Position numbers and translations under genes: made by a program. Positions 1,576 to 53,176 of a stretch of 53,727 bases of DNA are shown here, one piece after another (positions within the stretch are counted from its first letter, which is position 1; each line of letters starts with the position of its first letter). The notes below the pieces were generated by a model that saw only the letters and a list, made by a program, of their open reading frames with translations, had not been told where the DNA came from and did not search any database. The stretch comes from a virus, in IMG/VR virus record IMGVR_UViG_3300027721_000020, positions 1-53,727 of that record; one strand, given 5' to 3'.

Positions 1576-2573
1576 TAATAGATAGACTAAAATTAATAAA
1601 AGCACTGGAAACAGTGAAGCCCGGACTGGCTAGTAAAGAAATGATCGAACAAAGTACCTCATTTTGTTTCATTAAGGGAAATGTGGTGACTTATAATGAT
1701 GAAATAAGTATCTCCTGTCCATTGTCAGGATTAGATATGGAAGGTGCTATATCTGCCTTTGAATTACATGCTTTCATATCTAAGGTCAAACTTACGGAGA
1801 TTGACTTGGAAATTAAGGAAAATGAATTGATAATAAAGGCAGGAAAATCCAAAGCTGCATTGAAATTAAATGTTGATGTGGTGCTACCTATTGAGGAAAT
1901 TGGAGTAATTAAAAAATGGAAAAAATTGCCTGACAATTTTTGTAGCGGATTAAATTTTTGTATGCCAGTATGCTCAAGGAATATGTCCAGACCGCTTTTT
2001 ACTTGTGTCCACGTTAATGGAGATTCAGTGGAAGGTAGTGATAGCTTTCGCATCGCTAAGTATACACTAACATCCAAAACCGAAACAAAGCCATTCCTAA
2101 TACCTGCAAATGTATGCAGCAAGGTGATAAAGATGTTTCCTTCACATATAGCTGAGGGGGAAGGATGGGTTCATTTCAAAACAGAGGATGGAGCTGTGTT
2201 GAGTTGTCGGATATTTGAGGAGAAATATCCCGAAGTTGTTGAGATATTGCACGTTAAAGGTACAGCAATAACATTTCCGGGAAATCTATTGTCTATTTTG
2301 GACAAGGCAAGTATATTTTCAAAGCGGGAACATATATTGGATGAAAGTATTACCATTATCATTGAATCACGGATGATTAAGGTAATATCAGCATCCGAGA
2401 CAGGCAGATTCGAGGAAAAGGAGAGAATAGCATATACTGGAGAACCTATTACTTTCTCCATCCCTCCATATTTGTTAAAGGATATTTTGAAACAAACCTC
2501 ACAAGGCATTATAAATGCAGAGCGTCTGCGATTTGAAGGAGATAATTGGGAGTATGTAACAATGGTTCAATAA
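1572..2573 (+). CDS. dnaN: DNA polymerase sliding clamp (beta clamp-like)
   Basis: A 333-residue DnaN-like protein, somewhat shorter than bacterial beta clamps (about 370). It has the three-repeat style of alternating strands and short helices, and patterns such as DGDSVEGSDSFRIAKY near residue 155-165 that resemble the clamp's TDGHRLA motif. It would act as the ring-shaped processivity factor for the PolA-type polymerase encoded next to it. Its start overlaps the DpdA stop by four bases, and the clamp loader follows at 5291. The pairing of clamp, polymerase and loader supports the call. Identification rests on fold-like pattern and context rather than on one decisive motif. Confidence 0.8.
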   Translation: MIIDRLKLIKALETVKPGLASKEMIEQSTSFCFIKGNVVTYNDEISISCPLSGLDMEGAISAFELHAFISKVKLTEIDLEIKENELIIKAGKSKAALKLNVDVVLPIEEIGVIKKWKKLPDNFCSGLNFCMPVCSRNMSRPLFTCVHVNGDSVEGSDSFRIAKYTLTSKTETKPFLIPANVCSKVIKMFPSHIAEGEGWVHFKTEDGAVLSCRIFEEKYPEVVEILHVKGTAITFPGNLLSILDKASIFSKREHILDESITIIIESRMIKVISASETGRFEEKERIAYTGEPITFSIPPYLLKDILKQTSQGIINAERLRFEGDNWEYVTMVQ

Positions 2574-2581
2574 TTTTACTT

Positions 2582-5215
2582 ATGAAAGAAGGATTTTTTT
2601 CAGCTAAGGAAACAAGCAGTGATTCCCGTCCCGATGGGAAGGTTTACTCCTGTGTATCCTGCGGCAGGTACAAGGGATGCTACACACCGAAAATGAAAGC
2701 CTCAGGGGAGTTCAATAAGGGAATTCTAAATATAGGAAGTTTCCCTACTCAAATAGAGGACAGACGGGGAAAACATTTCCAGAATAAGGAAGGTATACTG
2801 CTTGAAAAAACATACAAGAAATTGGGAATTGACCTCCATAAAGATTGCCTCAATATATATGCCGTGAATTGTATGGGTACGGATATTCCTTCCACTTATG
2901 AGCTGGATTGTTGCAGGAAAAGTATTCTCAAAATAATTGAGACCCATAAGCCTAAAATAATAATATTGTTAGGTGAAGAGGCGCTATACTCAGTAATAGG
3001 TAATAGGTGGAAATCGGATTTAGGGAAGGTCGAAAAGTGGAGAGGCTTTACAATACCTGATCAGGATTTTAAAGCATGGGTTTGTCCTACATTCGCAATT
3101 AAAACGATTATAGAGGCTAAATATGAGGTGTCTTCACTTATTTGGGAGCAGGATTTGAAAAAAGCCTTTGATTTGATTAATACTCCATTTCGATACTCTG
3201 AACCTCCTGTAATTGAATATTTAACGGAGGATAATCTTAAGGTACTCAATGCGATCAAAGATTGTGATATTGCCTTTGATTATGAGACCACGGGGTTAAA
3301 GCCGTATGCAAAAGGACACAAAATAGTTTGCGCTTCGGTAGCATACACTGAAAATAACGTGTACTCCTTTATGATGCCAACTACCAAAAATGGAATGAGG
3401 CCCTTTACAGACCTACTACTAAGACAATCTGTGGCTAAAATCGCCGCTAATATGAAATTTGAGGATACATGGTCTATTATTAAGCTGAGGACTAAAGTGG
3501 TTAAATGGCTATGGGATACTATGCAGGCTGCACATATTATTGATAATCGAAGCGGGGTAACGGGATTAAAATTTCAAACCTATGTTAATTTTGGGATTGT
3601 GGACTACGCCAGTGAGATTAGTCCGTATCTTAAGGCTAAGGATGATAAGGATGCGAATTCAATCAACCGAATAGAGGACCTGCTAGCAATACCAGGGGGA
3701 AAACACAAATTATTGCAATATGGTGCATATGATAGTATATATGAGTATCGCTTATCGGTTTTACAGCGAAAAATAATAAATACAATCCAACCTAAAGGCA
3801 GCAGGTTCGGTGCAAATGTAGTGGAAGCATATGAATTATTCCATAACGGTATTTTGGATTTGGCAAAGGCTGAACGTCAAGGACTAAGAGTAGATGAGAA
3901 TTATACGATTGAGCAAAAACAAAAATTAACAGAAAATATAGAAAATGTAGAAAATGAATTATATAATTCCAAATTCTATAAGCATTGGCGACACGTTGCA
4001 AGGTGTACTATTAATTTGGATAGTCCAGTTATGTTAGGTTCTTATCTATATGGTACCTTAGGACTTACACCTAAGAAGTATACAAAGACAGGTAAGGGAA
4101 GCACCGATGAGCAGGCACTATCAATGTTGCATATACCTGAATTAGATATGCTCCTCAAACGAAGTAAGTTAATGAACCTTAGAGATACATTCTTAGAAGG
4201 GGTGTCGAGGGAACAAGTCAATGGACGACTTCATCCTTTTTTCAATCTACACTTAGCCCGAACCTACAGAAGCTCATCTAATAACCCTAACTTTCAAAAT
4301 ATCCCAAAACGAGATACTTTAGCCATGACTACCATACGGTCTGCCATTTACCCAAGGGTAGGGCATCAATTGTTGGAAATGGATTTTTCGGGTATTGAGG
4401 TGTGTATAGCAGCATGTTATCATCAGGACCCTAACATGGTCAAATATATCAAAGACCCTAATAGTGATATGCACGGGGATATGGCTAGGCAAATATTTAT
4501 TATTGATAAGTGGGATAGAGGAAGGAGAGACCACTCATTGCTTAGAGGTGCAGCTAAAAATGGATTTGTATTTCCACAATTCTATGGAGATTATTACAAA
4601 AATAATGCGGAAAATATCTGCAATAATTGGGTAAACTTACCCTTGTCAAAATGGGATGTTTCAATGGGAATAAAATTAGATAACGGAATTACCATTGCAG
4701 AGCATCTAATTTCAAAAAAAATAAACTCCTACGATAAATTTGCTGAACATTTGAAAGGCATTGAGGCCGATTTTTGGAATAACAGGTTTCCCAGATATGC
4801 TGAATGGAAGGAGGAGCATTTTGCTACTTACTTGAAATATGGGTATATTCCCTTAAAGACAGGATTTGTTTGCAGCGGTGTAATGGGGAAAAATGATGTT
4901 TCAAACTACCCTGTACAAGGCTCTGCTTTCCATTGCCTTTTATGGACATTCTCAAAAATAACTGAGGAATTGGAAAAAAGAGATATGCAGTCAAAGGTAA
5001 TAGGACAGATACACGATGCTGTGGTTTTCGATATTCACCCTCCTGAACTAAATGCAGTATATTACTTAATGCAACAAATTGTGGTCCATTTACTCCCAAA
5101 ACATTATACGTGGATAAATGTCCCATTAGGTATTGATGCAGAGCTTTGTCCTATTGATGGAAATTGGGCGGAAAAAAAGAAATGGAAACCAGAAGTAGAT
5201 GACCTGCCTTTTTAA
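2582..5215 (+). CDS. polA: Family A DNA polymerase with N-terminal uracil-DNA glycosylase-like domain
   Basis: An 877-residue replicative polymerase; ATG 2582 is chosen because the upstream in-frame TTG lies inside the clamp gene. Residues 1-200 look like a family 4 UDG with a probable Fe-S site: CVSCGRYKGC near the N-terminus, then a Cys pair followed by KPKIIILLG. A DnaQ/PolI-type 3'-5' exonuclease starts with FDYETTG near residue 230. The polymerase part has motif A (EMDFSGIE, about 598), motif B (RGAAKNGFVFPQFYGD, about 654) and motif C (QIHDAVVFD, about 808). Motif C reads HDA where most family A enzymes have HDE. A UDG fused to phage PolA is known from other phages (SPO1-like). It probably works with the neighbouring clamp and clamp loader. 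Confidence 0.93.
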   Translation: MKEGFFSAKETSSDSRPDGKVYSCVSCGRYKGCYTPKMKASGEFNKGILNIGSFPTQIEDRRGKHFQNKEGILLEKTYKKLGIDLHKDCLNIYAVNCMGTDIPSTYELDCCRKSILKIIETHKPKIIILLGEEALYSVIGNRWKSDLGKVEKWRGFTIPDQDFKAWVCPTFAIKTIIEAKYEVSSLIWEQDLKKAFDLINTPFRYSEPPVIEYLTEDNLKVLNAIKDCDIAFDYETTGLKPYAKGHKIVCASVAYTENNVYSFMMPTTKNGMRPFTDLLLRQSVAKIAANMKFEDTWSIIKLRTKVVKWLWDTMQAAHIIDNRSGVTGLKFQTYVNFGIVDYASEISPYLKAKDDKDANSINRIEDLLAIPGGKHKLLQYGAYDSIYEYRLSVLQRKIINTIQPKGSRFGANVVEAYELFHNGILDLAKAERQGLRVDENYTIEQKQKLTENIENVENELYNSKFYKHWRHVARCTINLDSPVMLGSYLYGTLGLTPKKYTKTGKGSTDEQALSMLHIPELDMLLKRSKLMNLRDTFLEGVSREQVNGRLHPFFNLHLARTYRSSSNNPNFQNIPKRDTLAMTTIRSAIYPRVGHQLLEMDFSGIEVCIAACYHQDPNMVKYIKDPNSDMHGDMARQIFIIDKWDRGRRDHSLLRGAAKNGFVFPQFYGDYYKNNAENICNNWVNLPLSKWDVSMGIKLDNGITIAEHLISKKINSYDKFAEHLKGIEADFWNNRFPRYAEWKEEHFATYLKYGYIPLKTGFVCSGVMGKNDVSNYPVQGSAFHCLLWTFSKITEELEKRDMQSKVIGQIHDAVVFDIHPPELNAVYYLMQQIVVHLLPKHYTWINVPLGIDAELCPIDGNWAEKKKWKPEVDDLPF

Positions 5216-39884: not shown

Positions 39885-41690
39885 ATGGCGAATAAATTCA
39901 TGGCTCTTAAAATGGCTAACTTATTTGAGATAGGAGACGATACGGTAATTCGTTTGGTCTTCCCTTTCAACCAGTACACCATTGATAATGTTAAGGCAAT
40001 ACCAGGAAGAAGGTATTCGGTTGAGCAAAAATATTGGACCGTCCCTCTACGAATAGAGAACTATTTTGAACTGAAGGAACTTCTTTTTTCCTTCGGTAGT
40101 GAATTGCAAAATTGGGCTGATAATGAGATCAGATCAAAAAAAGCCAAGTCTGTTAACCTTGACTTATCGGGGGTAAAAGGGACATTGTTGCCGTATCAAA
40201 TTGAAGGGGTCAAAGCGATTGAAAATAATGAAGGAAGGTGTCTATTGGCAGATGAGATGGGACTAGGTAAAACAGTACAAGCTTTGGTATGGCTTCACAC
40301 TCATCCCGAATTGCGTCCGGCACTCGTGGTTTGCCCTGCTAGTTTGAAATTAAATTGGGAGAAGGAAGCGTTAAAATGGATTAAGTGTAAGGATGTTCAG
40401 GTATTAGAAGGGAAGGAACTTGTTGCTTTGTCAAATGATATTATTATTATTAATTATGACATTATCGGAAATGATTCGAGACAATCTATCTCTAAAACAG
40501 GAGAACCCATGTTTAAGCCCAATGGTAAGCCTCGTATGGAAGAAATACCTAATTCTGGCTGGCAAGATGAATTGATTGCACATAACATCAAGGTAATAAT
40601 TTTGGATGAATCACATTACATCAAAAACGAAAACACCAAAAGAGCTACAGGAGTAAGGTCAATTTGCAGAGGAGTAAAACATATATTAGCTCTTACTGGT
40701 ACACCTATTGAAAATAGGCCTATTGAACTATATAATATTGTGGCTATGCTAAAGCCTACGTTATTTCCGAATAAATGGAACTACCAGCACCGATTTTGCG
40801 GAGCAAAGCACAACGGTTTTGGATGGGATTTTTCGGGGTCGAGCAATACGGAGGAACTTCATGAACTATTGACAAAATGGGTCATGATAAGGCGCATGAA
40901 AAGGGATGTTTTGCAAGATTTGCCGGATAAGATCTACTCATATATTCCGCTAAGAATTACTAACAGAGGAGAATATCGTAAGGCAGAGCAGGATTTTGTG
41001 GATTATTTACAAAATAAGGTATTAGGCACTTTGCAAAATAAGGTGGAGGAAAGTATGCAATTAGGTTTTCCTGAGATGCAGTTCACCGAAGCGTCTGTGG
41101 AAAATCTCAAACAAAGTATAGCGGACAAAACGAACCCATTAACAATAATAAGTGGATTAAAACAGTTAGCTGCACAAGGTAAAATAAACGGGATGTTAGA
41201 ATGGGTAGAGGATTTTCTGGAATCTGGCGAAAAACTTGTCTTATTTTGTGAACATATATTTGTAGTGGACGCCGTAATGGAGAAGTTCAACAAGGTGGCT
41301 GTGAAGGTCATAGGAGGAATGTCTGCAAAAAATAAGGAACTGTCAGTAACACAGTTCCAAGAAAACAAAAAAATAAAACTATTTGTAGGCACTTCTGCGG
41401 CAGAAGTAGGTTACACTTTGACCGCTGCATCAAATGTAGGAATTATTGAATTCCCCTGGAAACCTGGGCAACTATCCCAACGGGTAGATAGGCTACATAG
41501 AATCGGACAAAAGAATGCTGTTAATGTGTATTATTTCATCGGGGTAAGAACTATTGATGCGAAAATTGCCGAATTACTTGATGGAAAACAGAAGGTGCTA
41601 GATGCGGTATTAGATGGAAAAGAGACCGAAACGGTTAATTTAATCACAGAACTCATAAAAAAATATAAAAATGGAAATATCTCTAACTAA
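39885..41690 (+). CDS. SNF2-family helicase with HARP-like N-terminal domain (SMARCAL1-like)
   Basis: A 601-residue DNA translocase. The N-terminal 90 residues (FPFNQYTIDNVKAIPGRRYSV, EQKYWTVPL) resemble the HARP-type substrate domain of SMARCAL1 and related annealing helicases. Motif Q/I includes LPYQIEGVKAIE and ADEMGLGKT (about 122-130). Motif II is LDESHYIKN (about 240-248), motif III LTGTPIENRP, and motifs V-VI are GTSAAEVGYTLTAA and QRVDRLHRIGQ (about 532-542). Such enzymes reanneal or remodel forked DNA. It lies near the primase and helicase genes, so a fork-restart role is likely. Confidence 0.88.
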   Translation: MANKFMALKMANLFEIGDDTVIRLVFPFNQYTIDNVKAIPGRRYSVEQKYWTVPLRIENYFELKELLFSFGSELQNWADNEIRSKKAKSVNLDLSGVKGTLLPYQIEGVKAIENNEGRCLLADEMGLGKTVQALVWLHTHPELRPALVVCPASLKLNWEKEALKWIKCKDVQVLEGKELVALSNDIIIINYDIIGNDSRQSISKTGEPMFKPNGKPRMEEIPNSGWQDELIAHNIKVIILDESHYIKNENTKRATGVRSICRGVKHILALTGTPIENRPIELYNIVAMLKPTLFPNKWNYQHRFCGAKHNGFGWDFSGSSNTEELHELLTKWVMIRRMKRDVLQDLPDKIYSYIPLRITNRGEYRKAEQDFVDYLQNKVLGTLQNKVEESMQLGFPEMQFTEASVENLKQSIADKTNPLTIISGLKQLAAQGKINGMLEWVEDFLESGEKLVLFCEHIFVVDAVMEKFNKVAVKVIGGMSAKNKELSVTQFQENKKIKLFVGTSAAEVGYTLTAASNVGIIEFPWKPGQLSQRVDRLHRIGQKNAVNVYYFIGVRTIDAKIAELLDGKQKVLDAVLDGKETETVNLITELIKKYKNGNISN

Positions 41691-42292: not shown

Positions 42293-43204
42293 ATGGACAT
42301 TGAATCATTATACAGAGATCATAACATTAGGTATCAATCCGAAGGTCATAAGCATTGCAGACCAGGATGGATAAATACAGTGTGTCCTTTCTGTACTGGA
42401 GAACACGCTGGACTGCATCTTGGATATGATCTTGTCGGCAATAAGTTTGTATGTTGGCGCTGTGGAGGACATTGGACAGACCTCACTATTTCCAAACTCC
42501 TGAACATAACAAAACAAGAGGCTAATACAATTATCAGGCAATACGGAGCTTTGACAAGGAAAGCACCTGAAATGAAGAGGAAAATACGTATACTATCCTT
42601 TAAATTACCTGCTAATACCTCTGCATTGCAAGCTAATCATACTAAATATCTTACCAATCGTATGTTTGATGTGGATAAGCTTGTACATGAATGGAAAATC
42701 CAAGGCACAGGAGTCTCAGCTAAATTAGACAATATCGAGTATAAGCATAGGATTGTAATTCCATTTTTCTGGAATGGAGTTATGGTATCATTTGATAGCA
42801 GAGATATTACCAACAAATCCCAGTACAAGTATATGGCTTGTCCAGAAGCAAGGGAATTAATCGGGCATAAGCAAATATTGTATGGTCGAAAGGATAAATG
42901 GGGTAAGACAGGAATATGTGTAGAAGGCCCGACGGATGTATGGCGTTTCGGATTCAATTCATTTGCCACGTCAGGAATAAAATACACCCCTGCGCAATTA
43001 CGAATAATGGCTAAGACATTCACTAGGATTCCTGTTATATTCGACAATGATATAGGAAACCCTCAGGCAAAAATACAAGCCAACAAATTAGTAGCAGAGC
43101 TGAAATTTAGAGGAGTAGACGCCTTTAGAGTTGACATTGAAGGAGATCCTGGAGGAATGAAACAAACAGAAGCGGATTATTTAATCAAACAATTATTAAA
43201 ATAA
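42293..43204 (+). CDS. DNA primase (zinc finger plus TOPRIM)
   Basis: A 303-residue DnaG-type primase. The zinc-binding domain has CPFC (31-34) and CWRC (54-57). The TOPRIM core shows CVEGPTD (about 208-215) with the catalytic Glu, and IFDNDIG (about 249-255) with the metal-binding DxD. There is no helicase part, so it works with the separate DnaB-like protein encoded at 46256. It makes primers for the PolA-type polymerase. Confidence 0.9.
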   Translation: MDIESLYRDHNIRYQSEGHKHCRPGWINTVCPFCTGEHAGLHLGYDLVGNKFVCWRCGGHWTDLTISKLLNITKQEANTIIRQYGALTRKAPEMKRKIRILSFKLPANTSALQANHTKYLTNRMFDVDKLVHEWKIQGTGVSAKLDNIEYKHRIVIPFFWNGVMVSFDSRDITNKSQYKYMACPEARELIGHKQILYGRKDKWGKTGICVEGPTDVWRFGFNSFATSGIKYTPAQLRIMAKTFTRIPVIFDNDIGNPQAKIQANKLVAELKFRGVDAFRVDIEGDPGGMKQTEADYLIKQLLK

Positions 43205-44219: not shown

Positions 44220-44248
44220 TTGGGGGTTAATTATTTTTTGTACTTTTA
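44220..44248 (+). promoter_or_regulatory. Promoter for candidate small RNA
   Basis: TTG at 44220-44222, 18 bases, then TACTTTTA at 44241-44248. Transcription would start a few bases later, at or close to the first arm of the 18-bp inverted repeat. Confidence 0.65.
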
Positions 44249-44250
44249 CG

Positions 44251-44390
44251 TTACTCTACAAAATAATGCTAAATTGTGCCATAATATATCATTATTTTGT
44301 AGAGTAAATTGTTATTAGTTTTTAGTTGAATCAAAAGTCTTTGGGGAGTAGGTGAGGCACCACTGAAACCCAAGGGCTTTTTTATTTTAA
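44251..44390 (+). ncRNA. Candidate small RNA with two hairpins and terminator
   Basis: The gene-free stretch 44160-44482 contains a full transcription unit in miniature. After the promoter comes an 18-bp perfect inverted repeat, TTACTCTACAAAATAATG at 44251-44268 against 44290-44307, with a 21-base loop. Then a second stem-loop pairs AAGTCTTTGGG (44335-44345) with CCCAAGGGCTT (44369-44379, two G-U pairs) and encloses GGTG-AGG-CACC (44351-44361). A T run follows (44378-44389). This looks like a stand-alone RNA of roughly 130-140 bases, or a structured leader of the initiator gene. It codes for nothing obvious. I do not recognise it as a named family. Confidence 0.6.
44335..44388 (+). terminator. 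Branched intrinsic terminator
   Basis: The 11-bp outer stem (44335-44345 with 44369-44379) with an inner GGTG/CACC hairpin runs into CTTTTTTATTTT. It ends the candidate small RNA and may partly insulate the initiator gene. Confidence 0.65.
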
Positions 44391-44482: not shown

Positions 44483-45292
44483 ATGAAAAATACAAATTAT
44501 TTTGTTATTCAAGGATGGATGATAAATGAATTAAAACTAGGTGGAACGAATCTTATGATTTACGCCATAATTTATGGATTTTCACAGGATGAAAATTCCT
44601 CATATACTGGAAGTTTAGCATATTTAGCATCTTGGGTCAATGCAAGTAAACCTACTGTAATTAAGGCACTAAAGGAACTGGTAGACTTGGAGTTAATTTA
44701 CAAACATACCGAAGTTAAAAATAAGATAATTTTCAACTCGTATAAGGTATTAACGGTAGTAAAGGAACTTTACGGGGGTAGTAAAGAACCTTTACAGGGG
44801 GGTAGTAAAGAACCTTTACTCAATAATAAACAATATATACATAAAGAAATAAATAATAAAAAAAATAAACAAAAAAAAACTGAAATCATTACAAAAATGG
44901 AAAGGACTAAACCTTCCAAAATAAAAGAATCCATATCCGCCAAATCAACATTACCGAACTTCTATTTCGATTACGGATTTTTCACAAATGATTTTTCCAA
45001 AATATGGTTTGATGAATTCCTTCCATTGAAAAAAAGGAAGAAAGCAGCGATTACTGAACGAGCATTGAATTCCCAATTGAAAAAAATAAGCAATTATAGC
45101 CAAAATAATTATGATACTGCCTTAGAAATCCTTGAAAATAGTGTTAATGCGGGTTGGTCAGATTTTTATCCATTAAAAAATAAAACCAATTACACTCCAA
45201 CAAACAAATTAGGCTCCCGTTCTCAAACTTCCCATACCATTGACTATTCGAGCAAGGGGAAAAAAATACTTCATTTTTCTGAAATGTCATAA
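44483..45292 (+). CDS. Replication initiator (lambda O-like) with winged helix
   Basis: A 269-residue protein. The N-terminal 95 residues form a winged helix-turn-helix of the phage replisome-organiser type (LMIYAIIYGFSQDEN, YLASWVNASKPTVIKALKELVDLELI). A repeated, low-complexity linker follows (two GGSKEPL units, then Asn/Lys-rich). The C-terminal domain (about 139-269) begins at an internal Met with MERTKPSK. The gene contains the iteron array at 44756-44819, as lambda O contains its own origin. The next gene encodes a DnaC-like loader, as lambda P follows O. It should bind the iterons and recruit the loader and helicase. Confidence 0.8.
   Translation: MKNTNYFVIQGWMINELKLGGTNLMIYAIIYGFSQDENSSYTGSLAYLASWVNASKPTVIKALKELVDLELIYKHTEVKNKIIFNSYKVLTVVKELYGGSKEPLQGGSKEPLLNNKQYIHKEINNKKNKQKKTEIITKMERTKPSKIKESISAKSTLPNFYFDYGFFTNDFSKIWFDEFLPLKKRKKAAITERALNSQLKKISNYSQNNYDTALEILENSVNAGWSDFYPLKNKTNYTPTNKLGSRSQTSHTIDYSSKGKKILHFSEMS
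44756..44819 (+). repeat. Three origin iterons
   Basis: Three 18-base units start at 44756, 44778 and 44802: GTAGTAAAGGAACTTTAC once and GTAGTAAAGAACCTTTAC twice, each with dyad symmetry GTAAAG-n3-CTTTAC, separated by G-rich spacers. Unit 1 is read in a different reading frame from units 2 and 3, so the conservation is of DNA and not of protein. They are probable initiator binding sites. Confidence 0.8.
44820..44896 (+). other. Probable replication origin unwinding region
   Basis: Directly after the iterons, about 75 bases are almost pure A/T with long A runs. In lambda-type origins such a stretch next to the iterons is where the helix opens. Coding of the same stretch is a poor Asn/Lys linker, as expected when DNA function dominates. 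Confidence 0.65.
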
Positions 45293-45296
45293 ATTA

Positions 45297-45893
45297 ATGA
45301 TTATGAAAGAGTTCAAACATGCACCAATAGAAATTCAGGCTGAAAGGAATACTTTTTGGCAGGAAAATAAAAAACAGGAAATAATAAAATACTTCTCTCC
45401 AAGAGTAGCTAAGGTAATATCGGAGGTATACTCACCAAGTATGGAGTACCCTATCCCCAGTTGCTACATGTATGGTAAAACAAGGACAGGCAAAACAATT
45501 GCCGTGTATATTCGGTTATTAGAATGGTGCAGAATCCAATACATTAATAGAGGAATGATGAATTACAAGGTAACCTCTGTATTGCACCTGCTTGAAAGTC
45601 TTAGGAATAATTACAATAATCCTGAAATAAAGGAATTAATTGTCAGTGATGCGAAAAATGCAAGATTGCTGGTATTAGATGATTTTGGAGCGGAAAAGAT
45701 TACCGAATGGGCGTTCATGATGCTGTATGACATTATTGACCACAGGTATAACAACCTATTGACCACGTTCTACACCTCCAATTTGTCATTGAATGAGCTG
45801 AGTGCCCAATTACAGGATGACAGAATCCCATCCAGAATAGCACAGGATTGCGGTGAAAACATTTTTGAGTTTACAAATAAACCATATATTTAA
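45297..45893 (+). CDS. Helicase loader (DnaC/IstB-like AAA+ ATPase)
   Basis: A 198-residue ATPase from ATG 45297 (ATG 45303 is an equal alternative). Walker A is YGKTRTGKT (about 58-66), Walker B LLVLDDFG (about 124-131), and a DnaC-type arginine region DDRIPSRIAQ lies near the end. It would load the DnaB-like helicase of 46256 at the origin inside the preceding initiator gene. It is shorter than DnaC and lacks most of the N-terminal helicase-binding part, so contact may go through the initiator. Confidence 0.85.
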   Translation: MIMKEFKHAPIEIQAERNTFWQENKKQEIIKYFSPRVAKVISEVYSPSMEYPIPSCYMYGKTRTGKTIAVYIRLLEWCRIQYINRGMMNYKVTSVLHLLESLRNNYNNPEIKELIVSDAKNARLLVLDDFGAEKITEWAFMMLYDIIDHRYNNLLTTFYTSNLSLNELSAQLQDDRIPSRIAQDCGENIFEFTNKPYI

Positions 45894-46255: not shown

Positions 46256-47833
46256 ATGATTGAACGTCAAATAATAATTGGACTAATTACGTCCACAGCG
46301 TACCTTAAGAGGATTAAGCCTTCTTGGAATCCTATGTTACTGGAATCCTTTACAGCTAGATTGTTAGCTGATTGGGCATTTTCCCATTTTAAAAAATATG
46401 GAAAGGCTCCTAATAAGGAGATTGAAGCTATTTTTTTCAAAAAAGCAAGGGAAGGATTCAGTATGGTCTTTACAAAGGAAATAGCAGAAGAGATAGAAGA
46501 GGACATCCTGCCGGACCTAAGTGATGAGAGTGTTCACACTGAATTTGATTTAGAATACATGGTATCTGAGACATTGGTTTATTTGCGCTCTAGGCAGATA
46601 CTTATTTATGGTTCGCAGCTCACCAATATAATTGAAAACGGAAAAGGTGATATTGAGGAACGGATAAAACAAGCGGATAACATATCGAAGGAGTTCAAAA
46701 TTGTCAATACAATAAAGGACACAAGTATAGACCTGAGCAAAAAAGAAAGTCGGACAAACATAAAAAAGGCTTTTTGTAGTGCAGGGGACTGCATCGTCCA
46801 TTGGCCAAAACAATTAGGGCGATTTTGGAATGATAATTTTGTAGCAGGAGGATTCCTTTCTATTTTGGCTACTGAAAAACGGGGAAAGACATTTTGGTTA
46901 TTAGAAATTGCCATTCGAGCTGCCAGGCAAGGCAGAAAAGTAGCTTTCTTCCAAGCTGGAGATATGAACGAAGCGGAACAATTGAAGCGGATAGGAGTAT
47001 ACCTTTGCAAGCGTTCCAACTTGGAAAAGTATTGTAGTACTCATTGGGAACCTGTGAGAGACTGCATATTGAATCAAATGGACGAATGCGGAAAATCTGA
47101 AAGGGAATGCGATTACGGCATATTCCAAGAATTGAAAGAGGATGAAATTCGTAAATTAGGAAGCAAGGAGTTAATAGAGGCTGCGGAATCAGTAGAAGAC
47201 TACCTTCCATGCTACAATTGTAAGGATTATGACTTGAAAAAATTAGGAGCTCCTTATGTGAGAAAGGTGAGGAGCGTAGAACCATTAGAATGGAAAGACG
47301 TAGATAACGCTGTGGAGAGATTTTTCCGAAAATTCAAAAGGAGCTTCAAATTAGACACCTCAGCAAGCGGGACACTCTCAATAGATGCTGCTATTTCCAA
47401 AATGGATGCTTGGCAGGAGGAGGATGGATTTGTTGCGGATGTTGTGTTGTTTGACTATGCAGATTTGCTGGTACCTTCAATCAAAACAGAATTCAGGCAC
47501 CAGCAAAACCAAATATGGAAAGACCTGCGGAAGCTTTCACAGACAAAAAGAGAAGGCATACTTCCATTAGTAATATCACCTACGCAGGCTGATGCTCCTG
47601 CCTATAAGGCATATAGACTAAGTTTAGCAAATTTTTCTGAGGATAAACGTAAATATGGGCATGTTACTGCTATGTGGGGACTTAATCAGGACCCATTAGG
47701 ACGGGAAAAAGGAATAGGTCTAATGAGAATTAATGAACTAATTAAACGAGATGGAGATTTTTGCGAAACAAACGAAATAACTGTTTTACAGAATCTTAGG
47801 CAAGGACGACCATTTAAAGGAAGCTATTTTTAA
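46256..47833 (+). CDS. Replicative DNA helicase (DnaB-like)
   Basis: A 525-residue RecA-fold helicase. The N-terminal 190 residues are helical, in the place of the DnaB primase-binding domain. Walker A reads ATEKRGKT (about 205-212), preceded by AGGFLSIL as in DnaB-like proteins. Walker B is VVLFDYADLL (about 401-410), and SQTKREG with LVISPTQA match later motifs. A Cys-rich insert at about 250-325 (C-x3-C patterns and CYNCKDY) may bind zinc and is unusual for DnaB. It would unwind the fork with the primase at 42293. Confidence 0.85.
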   Translation: MIERQIIIGLITSTAYLKRIKPSWNPMLLESFTARLLADWAFSHFKKYGKAPNKEIEAIFFKKAREGFSMVFTKEIAEEIEEDILPDLSDESVHTEFDLEYMVSETLVYLRSRQILIYGSQLTNIIENGKGDIEERIKQADNISKEFKIVNTIKDTSIDLSKKESRTNIKKAFCSAGDCIVHWPKQLGRFWNDNFVAGGFLSILATEKRGKTFWLLEIAIRAARQGRKVAFFQAGDMNEAEQLKRIGVYLCKRSNLEKYCSTHWEPVRDCILNQMDECGKSERECDYGIFQELKEDEIRKLGSKELIEAAESVEDYLPCYNCKDYDLKKLGAPYVRKVRSVEPLEWKDVDNAVERFFRKFKRSFKLDTSASGTLSIDAAISKMDAWQEEDGFVADVVLFDYADLLVPSIKTEFRHQQNQIWKDLRKLSQTKREGILPLVISPTQADAPAYKAYRLSLANFSEDKRKYGHVTAMWGLNQDPLGREKGIGLMRINELIKRDGDFCETNEITVLQNLRQGRPFKGSYF

Positions 47834-48441: not shown

Positions 48442-48819
48442 ATGTACACGATAACAAAAGAATTTGAATTTTCAGCAAGTCATCAATTACTGTACCTAGC
48501 AGAAGGGCATCCTTGCAGCAGGCTTCATGGACATAATTATAGGATACGAATTGAGTGCAAAAATGCTGTTTTGAATAAAGCGGGGTTTGTACTTGATTAC
48601 CATGAATTAGAAGGTATTAAGACTTGGTTGAATGAAATGATTGACCATGAACACTTAAATAACCTAATGGAAGAAAATCCTACCGCTGAGAATATAGCAA
48701 CTATGATTTACCGGTATGTAAAGCACACATTGAAAATTTGGCAAATTTCTGCCGTAGAAGTGTCCGAAACTCCTAAAACAAATTGTCGATATGAGCCAGA
48801 TTATAATACCAAGTTATAG
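48442..48819 (+). CDS. queD: 6-carboxytetrahydropterin synthase
   Basis: A 125-residue T-fold enzyme. It makes 6-carboxytetrahydropterin from dihydroneopterin triphosphate, step 2 of 7-deazaguanine synthesis. Zinc ligands are H14, H29 and H31 (LHGHNY). Catalytic residues are C25 and the D68-H69 pair in IDHEHLN, with the pterin-binding Glu in VSET (E109). Its 3' end overlaps queE by 29 bp. FolE, encoded at 50885, supplies the substrate. Confidence 0.93.
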   Translation: MYTITKEFEFSASHQLLYLAEGHPCSRLHGHNYRIRIECKNAVLNKAGFVLDYHELEGIKTWLNEMIDHEHLNNLMEENPTAENIATMIYRYVKHTLKIWQISAVEVSETPKTNCRYEPDYNTKL

Positions 48820-49540
48820 CATTAATAATACAAATTTCGGAAACCCCGATAATTGTTTGCGAATTTCCGAGTTTTTTTGTGATACTATACAAGGAGAGGG
48901 GGTAAATATAGGAATGCCCGCTGCATTCCTTAGATTACAAGGATGCACACTAAATTGCAACTATTGCGATACAAAGGATATTTGGAAATTCGGCAGTGAT
49001 TACTCCTTCACCTACTTATTTGAATTGATGGAAACGTATCATCTCATCCCCAAATTAAGACAGGGAGTCCACTTGGTTATTACAGGAGGCAGTCCTCTGT
49101 TACAACAAAAAAACCTTATTTTATTTTTCAATAAATTTTCTAATAAATATAAATTCACTCCATATATTGAAATAGAAAACGAATGTATAATAATTCCACA
49201 TGAGGAATTAATTAATATGGTCTCGTGCTGGAATAATAGTCCTAAATTAAAATCAAGTGGTATGAAACCCCAAAATATAGTGGTGGAGTATATGCGGTAT
49301 TTACACAATAGTTGGTTTAAATTTGTTGTATCCTCGCAAGAGGATTGGATTGAAATAGCGGAAAGTTATTTGAATACAGGGTTAATTAATAAAGAGCAGG
49401 TAATATTAATGCCTAAAGGTGCTAATTTAGCTGAATTAGAAAAAAATAGGCAGCTAACTGTGGAATTAGCTATTCAAAACGGAGTGCGGTACTGCACACG
49501 TGAACACGTGGTTTTGTGGGACTTAGCAACGGGGGTTTAA
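48791..49540 (+). CDS. queE: 7-carboxy-7-deazaguanine synthase (radical SAM)
   Basis: A 249-residue radical SAM enzyme that converts carboxytetrahydropterin to 7-carboxy-7-deazaguanine. The Fe-S cluster motif is GCTLNCNYCDT (C52, C56, C59), after the typical QGEGVNIGMPAAFLRLQG. The SAM-binding GGE motif reads GGSP here (99-102), with Ser in place of Glu. The start overlaps queD. No QueC that would turn CDG into preQ0 is visible in the genome, so CDG may be the end product or the host may complete it. Confidence 0.92.
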   Translation: MSQIIIPSYSINNTNFGNPDNCLRISEFFCDTIQGEGVNIGMPAAFLRLQGCTLNCNYCDTKDIWKFGSDYSFTYLFELMETYHLIPKLRQGVHLVITGGSPLLQQKNLILFFNKFSNKYKFTPYIEIENECIIIPHEELINMVSCWNNSPKLKSSGMKPQNIVVEYMRYLHNSWFKFVVSSQEDWIEIAESYLNTGLINKEQVILMPKGANLAELEKNRQLTVELAIQNGVRYCTREHVVLWDLATGV

Positions 49541-50884: not shown

Positions 50885-51466
50885 ATGAATAATAATTGTG
50901 TAATAAAAGATCAATCAGATCAAATCATGCAAACATTACTTTCCACCATATTACAATATATAGGAGACAATCCAAATAGAGAAGGTCTCCAAGATACACC
51001 AAAACGTGTAATAAAAAGTTGGAATGAGCTTTACTGTGGGTATTCACAATCCCCCGAAAGTATGCTAACCACATTTGCTGAGGATACCTCCGACCAAATA
51101 GTAGTTCTAAAGGACATTGAGCTATACTCCATGTGTGAACACCATATGTTACCATTCTTTGGAAAAGCCCATGTAGCATATTTACCTGATGGTAAAATAA
51201 TCGGTATTTCAAAATTAGCTAGGTTAGTTGATATTTACGCCCGTAGGTTGCAGATACAGGAACGTATAGGTGACCAAGTTACCTCTGCATTGATGCAATA
51301 CCTAAAGCCAAAAGGAGCTGCTTGCATAATTGAAGCCTCTCATATGTGTATGAGAATGAGAGGGGTTTCAAAACAACATTCAAAAATGATGACTTCAAGC
51401 ATGAAAGGAGTATTCCTGACTGATACAAATTTGGAAAGTAAACTGTTAACCATGATCTCATTATGA
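50885..51466 (+). CDS. folE: GTP cyclohydrolase I
   Basis: A 193-residue enzyme, GTP to dihydroneopterin triphosphate, the first step of 7-deazaguanine synthesis. Zinc ligands are C84 and H87 in [10 protein letters not shown] and C155 in HMCMRMRGV. The [25 protein letters not shown] block and the [13 protein letters not shown] end are highly typical. It overlaps the next start by four bases, beginning the tight operon folE, QueD-like, radical SAM, glycosyltransferase, dpdA, clamp. Confidence 0.95.
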
Positions 51467-51792
51467 AACGATATGTAATAGTTAATACCAGTTTTACCGC
51501 ACAACATTCATGGCCAGAGTGTGAACTTGCTTCGGTATTATTTTTGCAGTATACACACAGGCATAATTTTTATGTTACCTTGAAAATAGCAATATCTCAT
51601 AATAATAGAGATATTGAAATAATTAGGCTTAAAAATGCTGTGGATATATTTTTAGATTCCTATAGGAATACTGATATGGGTAGCAAATCTTGTGAAGACA
51701 TTGCAGAGGAGCTACTAAGGACCTTTCATGCAAATTATGTTAGTGTATTAGAAGACAATGAAAACGGAGCTGAAATATATGAAAACTATTAG
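51463..51792 (+). CDS. Second T-fold (QueD-like) small protein
   Basis: A 109-residue protein that keeps the QueD metal site: H15 in TAQHSW, then H32 and H34 in YTHRHNFYV, with C20 where QueD has its catalytic Cys region, and a C-terminal [12 protein letters not shown] that corresponds to the pterin-binding Glu. It is shorter than QueD (125) and diverged, and the D-H pair is not obvious. It may act on a pterin or a 7-deazaguanine intermediate. It overlaps folE and the radical SAM gene on both sides, so it is a fixed part of the modification operon. Function unknown. Confidence 0.65.
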
Positions 51793-53176
51793 AACTATAA
51801 ATATAATTGATCCCAGCTCATCCGAGTTTAACCGAGGGAGTTTTTGTTATGCAGCCTATCTGGCATACAATTATTTAACCCAGAGTAAATTTGAGTATGA
51901 GGTTAATCTATTCGAGACGTTTATTCCTGAGGATATGGATAAATTGCCGAATGTAGATATAAATTTAGTTTGCCTCTGGTCATATCCACAAATCGAAACA
52001 TGCCAAATGTTGTATAATTTATTGCCCATGGCATTGGATGATAGCAACATTTATTTTATTGGGTATACTGAATTGATACTACATTTAGGTCTTCCTCATG
52101 CTAAACATGTGTTTTCCTTTGATTTTTTGAAAGACCGTAATTTTATTTTGGAATCCATAAAGGAATATCCTAAAAATTACCGTAATTTCAAAAGACTTCT
52201 ATTATCAGATTGTGATATGCACTTGAAAAAATTAGAAGTAGGTAATAATTTAGTTTACCCATTGTTTACTTCCTATGGCTGTCCTAATGGGTGTAATTTT
52301 TGTCCTTCAACAACCAATTGTGGAATGACAAGATTTTCCTTATCCATATGTGAAACTTTAGACCTACTTAGTGAATGTATATCTTTAGGAATCAATAGGA
52401 TTCATTTCACGGACGAGGATTTTTTCTACGATATTCATCGAGCGTACGGTATTTTAAACGGGGCTATTGAATTAATGGGAGGTTTTAATTTTATTGCCTT
52501 AGGTTCTGCCGAAGCTGTTTTACGGTATATATCTACCTACGGTACTGATAGTATTAGAGATAGTGGATTAAAGATTATTGAGATAGGTTTTGAAAGCGCC
52601 TCGGAAGAAATGTATGATTATTTAGGGGAAGGTAAATCATTAACAGCATGTGAAACCTTAGCACAAGGTCAATTAGCGTATCCATTTGATATATTCTGGT
52701 TAGTACAGACATTTTCAGTAGGGGAGACCATCGCATCATTGAATAAGACAGGTCTATTTATGCGGAAATATGGAAAAAATATAGACGAGGTTGTGGGTAG
52801 ATTGCGAACCAATGGGACTAAAGGAGGACTTGGGCAGTATTTTCAAGCATATCATGGTACCGGAATATACAAACGTGCAATGAAACATGGCAAATCCTTG
52901 ACAGATAGACCTATTAGATTATTTCCGAGTTATATTCCTAATTCTTTTTTGAATTCAGAACCGAAGGTAGTTTATCAGGAGCCGTACTGTCTACCGGCTT
53001 GGGAGTTCCAAATATGGTTAGATTTTTACCAAGTACCTACATCGGTTGTGAATTATCTTTTGGATACCATTAACGGAGAGCTTTCCGTTAGTGAACTATG
53101 TGAAGGTTATCCGAATTCGCATACAAAATTATATATCTGTTTAGCCATATTGGCTCGATTCCAAATAATCTCATAG
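51779..53176 (+). CDS. Radical SAM protein with degenerate N-terminal B12-binding-like domain
   Basis: A 465-residue protein from ATG 51779; ATG 51758 is an alternative. Residues 1-150 look like a reduced cobalamin-binding Rossmann domain (INIIDPSSSEFNRGSFCYAAYL, IYFIGYTELILHLGL) with no clear DxHxxG motif. The Fe-S motif is GCPNGCNFC (about 166-174, Cx3Cx2C). ISLGINRIHFTDEDFFYD (about 202-219) and IIEIGFESASEEMYDYLGEGKS fit the B12-type radical SAM family. The substrate is unknown. Placement between a QueD-like protein and a glycosyltransferase, upstream of dpdA, suggests it modifies the 7-deazaguanine base. Confidence 0.8.
   Translation: MKTIRTINIIDPSSSEFNRGSFCYAAYLAYNYLTQSKFEYEVNLFETFIPEDMDKLPNVDINLVCLWSYPQIETCQMLYNLLPMALDDSNIYFIGYTELILHLGLPHAKHVFSFDFLKDRNFILESIKEYPKNYRNFKRLLLSDCDMHLKKLEVGNNLVYPLFTSYGCPNGCNFCPSTTNCGMTRFSLSICETLDLLSECISLGINRIHFTDEDFFYDIHRAYGILNGAIELMGGFNFIALGSAEAVLRYISTYGTDSIRDSGLKIIEIGFESASEEMYDYLGEGKSLTACETLAQGQLAYPFDIFWLVQTFSVGETIASLNKTGLFMRKYGKNIDEVVGRLRTNGTKGGLGQYFQAYHGTGIYKRAMKHGKSLTDRPIRLFPSYIPNSFLNSEPKVVYQEPYCLPAWEFQIWLDFYQVPTSVVNYLLDTINGELSVSELCEGYPNSHTKLYICLAILARFQIIS

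What the first reader, a model, noticed from the sequence alone, without database searches (positions are those of the whole stretch)
44756..44896. Lambda-style origin inside the initiator gene, with iterons conserved across reading frames
Three 18-base dyad units start at 44756, 44778 and 44802. The 22-base step puts unit 1 in a different reading frame from units 2 and 3 (24-base step), so identical DNA encodes different peptides. That argues for DNA-level selection. About 75 bases of nearly pure A/T follow. The host gene is a winged-helix initiator and the next gene a DnaC-like loader, the exact layout of lambda O/P.
Basis: partly seen in the sequence, partly recalled or inferred. Interest (0 to 1): 0.75.

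Follow-up and report, generated by a model that had tools for sequence, protein, structure and literature searches.

The report
Phage replication origin inside its initiator gene
A phage, probably of Bacteroidota, carries its likely DNA-replication start site inside the gene for the protein that should recognise it, and across about 140 related genes the protein's DNA-reading residues and the repeats change together, so the two very probably belong to one lock-and-key system like that of phage lambda.

Summary
Three dyads GTAAAG-nnn-CTTTAC lie at 44759-44773, 44781-44795 and 44805-44819. They are the only exact copies in the 53.7 kb record, sit in codon frames 0,1,1, and beat 1000 synonymous reshuffles of the gene (p=0.001). 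A tract of 77 bp, 88% A+T, follows. The host gene has a winged helix (HTH_36; PHROG O-like). The next gene is a DnaC-like loader, then a small ORF and a DnaB-like helicase.

The decisive evidence is comparative. Of 182 distinct relatives, 140 carry in-gene dyad repeats beyond synonymous shuffles (p<=0.05), spaced mostly 20-24 bp, usually in several frames. The half-site differs between phages and tracks the N-terminus of the recognition helix: residue 57 with half-site base 3 (Arg gives G 19/19, Pro gives A 41/44), residue 58 with base 6 (Gly gives C 33/35). Phylogenetically independent pairs agree 18:0 for Arg/Lys/Glu57 with G and 18:0 for Gly58 with C; control columns do not. Initiator and in-gene iterons thus co-evolve as protein and binding site. 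Origin firing itself is inferred.

The kind is known (lambda O; SPP1 gene 38, whose 38-39-40 order is closer than lambda's). The readable code is the new part.

The parts
44483..45292 (+). Initiator gene, 269 aa: winged helix, disordered linker, C-terminal helical domain
   Evidence: Pfam HTH_36 3.3e-8; PHROG 678 replication initiation O-like 5.3e-20, PHROG 186 DnaD-like 8.9e-10; AlphaFold2 model with winged helix 1-89 at pLDDT about 95
44648..44686 (+). Codons 56-68: recognition helix; residues 57 and 58 (Pro, Thr here) co-vary with half-site bases 3 and 6
   Evidence: Helix 56-68; covariation
44756..44773 (+). Iteron 1, dyad GTAAAG-GAA-CTTTAC, codon frame 0
44778..44795 (+). Iteron 2, dyad GTAAAG-AAC-CTTTAC, codon frame 1
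44802..44819 (+). Iteron 3, dyad GTAAAG-AAC-CTTTAC, codon frame 1
44820..44896 (+). A+T-rich, T-poor tract, candidate DNA unwinding element
   Evidence: 88% A+T; relatives also A+T-rich here, median 77% versus 66% for the gene
44960..45151 (+). C-terminal helical domain (residues 160-223), candidate loader/helicase contact (inferred)
   Evidence: AlphaFold2 model; PHROG O-like and DnaD-like matches extend into it
45297..45893 (+). DnaC-like AAA+ helicase loader
   Evidence: PHROG 50 DnaC-like 2.3e-30, Pfam IstB_IS21 5.7e-7; ATG at 45297 or 45303
46256..47833 (+). DnaB-like replicative helicase
   Evidence: PHROG 19 2.5e-14
42293..43204 (+). DNA primase (TOPRIM type) upstream
   Evidence: PHROG 47 1.7e-29; Pfam DNAG_N 0.0019, below the curated cut-off

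Best explanation
This is an iteron-type phage replication origin embedded in the initiator gene. The winged-helix domain (residues 1-89) binds each dyad, most likely as a dimer with one recognition helix per 6-bp half-site; residues 57 and 58 at the start of that helix set half-site bases 3 and 6. Three dimers spaced 22-24 bp form a nucleoprotein complex next to the A/T tract and destabilise it. The C-terminal domain then recruits the DnaC-like loader, which places the phage's DnaB-like helicase on the opened strand for theta-type replication. Both DNA elements are coded in the disordered linker between the two protein domains, where peptide sequence is free to vary. SHOWN by computation: dyads, frame independence, position, A/T tract, predicted protein fold, neighbouring genes, helix-iteron covariation. 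INFERRED: dimer binding, unwinding, loader recruitment, actual firing.
For: (1) Dyads beyond chance and beyond coding constraint. (2) 140 of 182 relatives carry such repeats at p<=0.05 (85/114; 55/68); the same statistic recovers lambda O's known iterons. (3) Spacing peaks at 22-24 bp with multiples near 42-46; spacings modulo 3 are spread 110/128/93; units in two or more frames in 117/139 genes. (4) Among all winged-helix columns, 57, 60, 58, 55, 62, 56 rank highest for association with the half-site (residue 57 with base 3, z 19). Arg57 gives G3 19/19, Pro57 gives A3 41/44, Lys57 gives G3 9/10, Gly58 gives C6 33/35. (5) A rule learnt on 85 genes predicts 226/330 half-site bases in 55 genes not used for training; 5000 permutations reached at most 210. 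(6) Independent pairs 18:0 and 18:0 (p 7.6e-6 each); cross-controls and 8 non-helix columns not significant. (7) Own-unit matches elsewhere in the held flanks: 5, none within 300 bp upstream of the start. (8) The next gene matches a DnaC-like loader family in 30 of 60 relatives, DnaB-like or primase/helicase families in others. (9) Iterons and A/T tract fall largely in the low-confidence (disordered) linker, about residues 98-150. (10) Lambda and SPP1 origins have this anatomy.
Against: No experiment. The tree rests on about 70 short columns: on well-supported branches alone only 1-4 independent pairs remain, too few for significance. The covariation rule is incomplete: mean accuracy 0.69 versus 0.57 for always guessing GTAAAG, and below that guess at base 2. 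42 of 182 genes show no significant array with this 6-3-6 search. Part of the A/T-richness is peptide composition (Asn, Ile, Lys), though A+T exceeds the synonymous mean in 123/136. A second, unrelated origin elsewhere in the record is not excluded.
Confidence: 0.88

Rival explanations
1. The dyads are operators: the winged-helix protein is a regulator that binds inside its own gene and blocks or modulates transcription of itself and downstream replication genes.
For: The fold is shared with CRP/MarR-type regulators; the covariation shows binding, not the purpose of binding.
Against: No copy of the own unit within 300 bp upstream of any of the 140 genes. PHROG matches are to replication initiators, and loader/helicase neighbours are common. 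An A/T tract follows the array in most genes. Autoregulation as a side effect is not excluded.
Confidence: 0.06
2. The repeats are a centromere-like partition or incompatibility site of a plasmid-like prophage, not an origin.
For: Arrays of bound repeats next to a DNA-binding gene also occur in partition systems (general knowledge).
Against: Neighbours are a helicase loader, a DnaB-like helicase and a primase. Terminase and portal genes make this a tailed phage. No ParA-like ATPase was seen among the genes examined, but not every gene was annotated.
Confidence: 0.03
3. The repeats act as RNA hairpins in the initiator mRNA (translation or stability control).
For: Each dyad could form a 6-bp stem with a 3-nt loop in the transcript.
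Against: Arm mismatches show no excess of G-U (76) over the complementary A-C class (101). Covariation is with DNA-reading residues of a winged helix. Spacing peaks at 20-24 bp.
Confidence: 0.02
4. Coincidental or peptide-level repeat (GGSKEPL twice) with no DNA function.
For: Units 2 and 3 are in the same frame and encode the same peptide.
Against: Unit 1 is in another frame; synonymous shuffles never reach the score; the peptides differ across frames in most relatives while the DNA repeat is kept.
Confidence: 0.01

Closest known systems
Bacteriophage lambda ori in gene O (O/P system)
   Same: Inverted-repeat iterons inside the initiator gene, 18-bp units spaced 20, 24, 23 bp and lying in codon frames 0, 2, 2, 1, followed by a 40-bp A+T-rich region; each is bound by an initiator dimer; a loader gene follows.
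   Different: Lambda O is Pfam Phage_rep_O, this protein HTH_36; hhalign finds no match between the family profile and lambda O. Dyad core is 6-3-6 here, best 6-5-6 in lambda. Loader here is DnaC-like AAA+; the phage has its own DnaB-like helicase and primase.
Bacillus phage SPP1 oriL in gene 38 (gp38 initiator, gp39 loader, gp40 DnaB helicase)
   Same: Origin of direct repeats plus A/T tract within the initiator gene; order initiator, loader, DnaB helicase (PMC6316719).
   Different: SPP1 has a second copy, oriR, about 13 kb away; this record has only one array. gp38 was not compared with P0001 by sequence here.
Flavobacterium phage FCV-1 and Bacteroides phage B40-8 homologues (annotated as hypothetical proteins)
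   Same: About 47-48% identity over the winged helix. B40-8 carries three in-gene dyads (L139). The FCV-1-type gene shows one intact GTGCAG-nnn-CTGCAC dyad (L011).
   Different: Other half-site sequences, with different recognition helices; the array test was not significant for L011 (p 0.35).
RepA_N initiators and iterons of V. cholerae PLE satellites
   Same: The DNA-binding domain co-varies with the origin iterons (PMC8263062).
   Different: The PLE origin is intergenic, the initiator family is different, and covariation is by module swap rather than by named residues.

Membership tests
In-gene iteron origins (lambda / SPP1 kind) | Array of three or more repeats inside the initiator coding sequence | tested here: met
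In-gene iteron origins (lambda / SPP1 kind) | Adjacent A+T-rich tract | tested here: met
   44820-44896, 88% A+T
In-gene iteron origins (lambda / SPP1 kind) | Helicase loader encoded next to the initiator | tested here: met
   DnaC-like, PHROG 50 2.3e-30
In-gene iteron origins (lambda / SPP1 kind) | The initiator binds the repeats | tested here: inconclusive
   Strong indirect support from recognition-helix/half-site covariation; no binding assay
In-gene iteron origins (lambda / SPP1 kind) | Replication starts at the array | not testable with these tools
   Needs marker-frequency data or a plasmid assay
Lambda O protein family (Pfam PF04492 Phage_rep_O) | Match to the family model | tested here: not met
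   Only HTH_36 passes its cut-off; lambda O scores 123 bits to PF04492; hhalign A4 versus lambda O finds nothing
Broad O-like initiators (PHROG 678) | Match to the PHROG profile that lambda O also matches | tested here: met
   P0001 5.3e-20; lambda O 1.7e-35
HTH_36 winged-helix domain (PF13730) | Score above curated cut-off | tested here: met
   33.6 bits, cut-off 25

The most novel reading that the evidence does not exclude
A readable initiator-to-origin code: two residues at the start of the recognition helix largely fix two half-site bases of iterons that sit in the same gene, so the origin of many unannotated phages can be located and its specificity predicted from the protein; gene plus origin behave as one self-contained specificity cassette that diversifies quickly, perhaps to escape cross-talk or origin-directed interference between phages.
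Probability: 0.5. Interest if true: 0.68.

Novelty: new member of a known kind. Interest (0 to 1): 0.52.

Why it matters
Homologues of this initiator in public phage records are annotated as hypothetical proteins, and I found no mapped origin for this family in the papers searched. This gives a large family of candidate origins with a testable specificity rule, useful for predicting origins, building replicons for hosts with few tools, and asking how initiator and origin change together without losing function when both are written in the same DNA.

Tried and rejected
GC skew as an origin marker: it follows gene orientation only. Rfam: nothing at gathering threshold in the window; sub-threshold microRNA matches at 44246-44314 are chance matches to a palindrome. 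PDB sequence and fold searches place the N-terminal domain among winged helices (CRP, MarR and others), with no replication initiator standing out; Foldseek on viral models finds replisome organizers and a lambda GpO N-terminal entry, but with low whole-chain TM. The treekit pair test on starred branches had too little support to be informative, so pairs were recomputed on all branches of the best tree; this is a weakness and is stated as such. Eight paper searches found no earlier description of iterons in this family or of a helix-iteron code; the library lacks most subscription journals, so work on lactococcal phages such as Tuc2009 and TP901-1, known to me from memory, could not be checked.

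Full report
WHAT IS THERE. The window is a whole IMG/VR virus record of 53,727 bp. Terminase and an SPP1-type portal mark a tailed phage; the closest public relatives of the initiator are in Flavobacterium, Bacteroides and Parabacteroides phages, so a Bacteroidota host is likely (inference). In gene 44483-45292 three units GTAGTAAAGnnnCTTTAC start at 44756, 44778 and 44802. The 6-bp arms are identical; only the 3-bp centre varies. The exact dyad occurs nowhere else in the record. The units are in codon frames 0, 1, 1. Keeping the protein and codon usage and reshuffling synonymous codons never gave as good a set of repeated dyads (1000 trials, maximum 18 against 24). A tract of 77 bp follows with 53 A, 15 T, 7 C and 2 G.

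THE PROTEIN. AlphaFold2 gives a confident winged helix (residues 1-89), a recognition helix at 56-68, a low-confidence, presumably disordered stretch at about 98-150 and a helical C-terminal domain at 160-223. The iterons and the A/T tract are written in and just before that linker (codons 92-138). Profiles call the protein HTH_36, O-like and DnaD-like. Next come a DnaC-like loader, a small ORF and a DnaB-like helicase, with a primase upstream. This is the order of SPP1 genes 38-39-40 more than of lambda O/P.

RELATIVES. Scans of viral and genome contigs, with phage records, gave 182 distinct initiator genes. The same repeat-plus-dyad statistic, each gene against its own synonymous shuffles, is significant (p<=0.05) in 85 of 114 and in 55 of 68 found later. 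Run on lambda O it recovers the known iterons, whose annotated positions also fall in frames 0, 2, 2, 1. Across 139 genes with clustered units, spacings pile up at 22, 23 and 24 bp (118, 60, 59 cases) with multiples near 42-46, are not restricted to multiples of three, and 117 genes use two or more frames; the first unit starts at codon 96 (median). The search region was codons 65-175, so the position is partly by design; the more independent check is that own-unit matches elsewhere in the loci number 5, with none within 300 bp upstream of the start. The 75 bp after the array are 77% A+T (median) against 66% for the gene, and exceed the synonymous expectation in 123 of 136.

THE KEY TEST. Half-sites differ between phages: GTAAAG, GTCAAA, GTGTAA, GTGAAA, GTGCAA, GTTCAG, TGCAAC, GTAAAC and others. 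If the winged helix binds them, its DNA-reading residues should change with them. The six winged-helix columns most associated with the half-site are 57, 60, 58, 55, 62 and 56, all at or next to the N-terminal part of the recognition helix. Over 140 genes Arg57 goes with G at base 3 in 19 of 19, Lys57 in 9 of 10, Pro57 with A in 41 of 44; Gly58 goes with C at base 6 in 33 of 35, Ala58 with G in 4 of 4. A rule trained on 85 genes predicts 226 of 330 bases in 55 genes not used for training; 5000 permutations averaged 177 and never exceeded 210; nearest neighbours chosen by the rest of the domain do worse (0.52 against 0.69). On a tree built without the helix, pairs on disjoint paths that differ at residue 57 (Arg/Lys/Glu or not) agree with base 3 in 18 cases and disagree in none; for Gly58 and base 6 also 18 and 0 (p 7.6e-6 each). 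Crossed pairings (57 with base 6 C, 58 with base 3 G) and eight other columns, including two between helix and iterons, are not significant. That specificity argues against simple linkage of neighbouring DNA. The tree is weakly supported: on starred branches only 1-4 pairs remain. CRP/CAP is among the fold matches; in CAP the equivalent of residue 57 would be Glu181, a known specificity residue (my knowledge, by motif alignment, not tested).

MECHANISM. By analogy with lambda and SPP1: dimers on three iterons, distortion, melting of the A/T tract, loader and helicase recruitment. Binding specificity is shown indirectly; everything after binding is inferred. Operator, partition-site, RNA-hairpin and peptide-repeat readings are less likely for the reasons given with each rival.

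STATUS. It works like a lambda/SPP1 in-gene origin and meets the anatomical features of that kind. It is not a member of the lambda O Pfam family, though both match one broad PHROG. The origin is a new member of a known kind; I did not find the helix-to-iteron code of this family described in the library searched.

Noticed in passing
window 44251-44307: 57-bp near-perfect palindrome (28-nt arms, 89% complementary, 1-nt centre), 176 bp upstream of the initiator start; its outer arm sequence occurs nowhere else in the window. Possible operator or second origin element.
   Followed up: partly
window 44333-44382: Terminator-like RNA hairpin with T-run just upstream of the initiator (fold z-score -3.2).
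   Followed up: partly
window 2546-5215: One 889-aa ORF joins a uracil-DNA-glycosylase-type domain, a 3'-5' exonuclease and a family A DNA polymerase domain.
   Followed up: no
window 48442-49540, 50885-51466, 51758-53176: PTPS (QueD-like), QueE-like radical SAM, GTP cyclohydrolase I and another radical SAM protein: looks like a 7-deazaguanine pathway, perhaps for DNA modification.
   Followed up: partly
window 39885-41690: SNF2-type helicase with a weak HARP match at its N-terminus, upstream of the primase.
   Followed up: no
L126 (genome contig), initiator codons 99-147: An eight-unit in-gene array, the largest seen, with half-site near TGGAAC and spacings of 15-22 bp.
   Followed up: no
L139-L142 (phages B40-8, BF10P2, PD491P1, BKO1-3): Cultured Bacteroides/Parabacteroides phages carry relatives of this initiator, annotated as hypothetical; usable for marker-frequency mapping.
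   Followed up: partly
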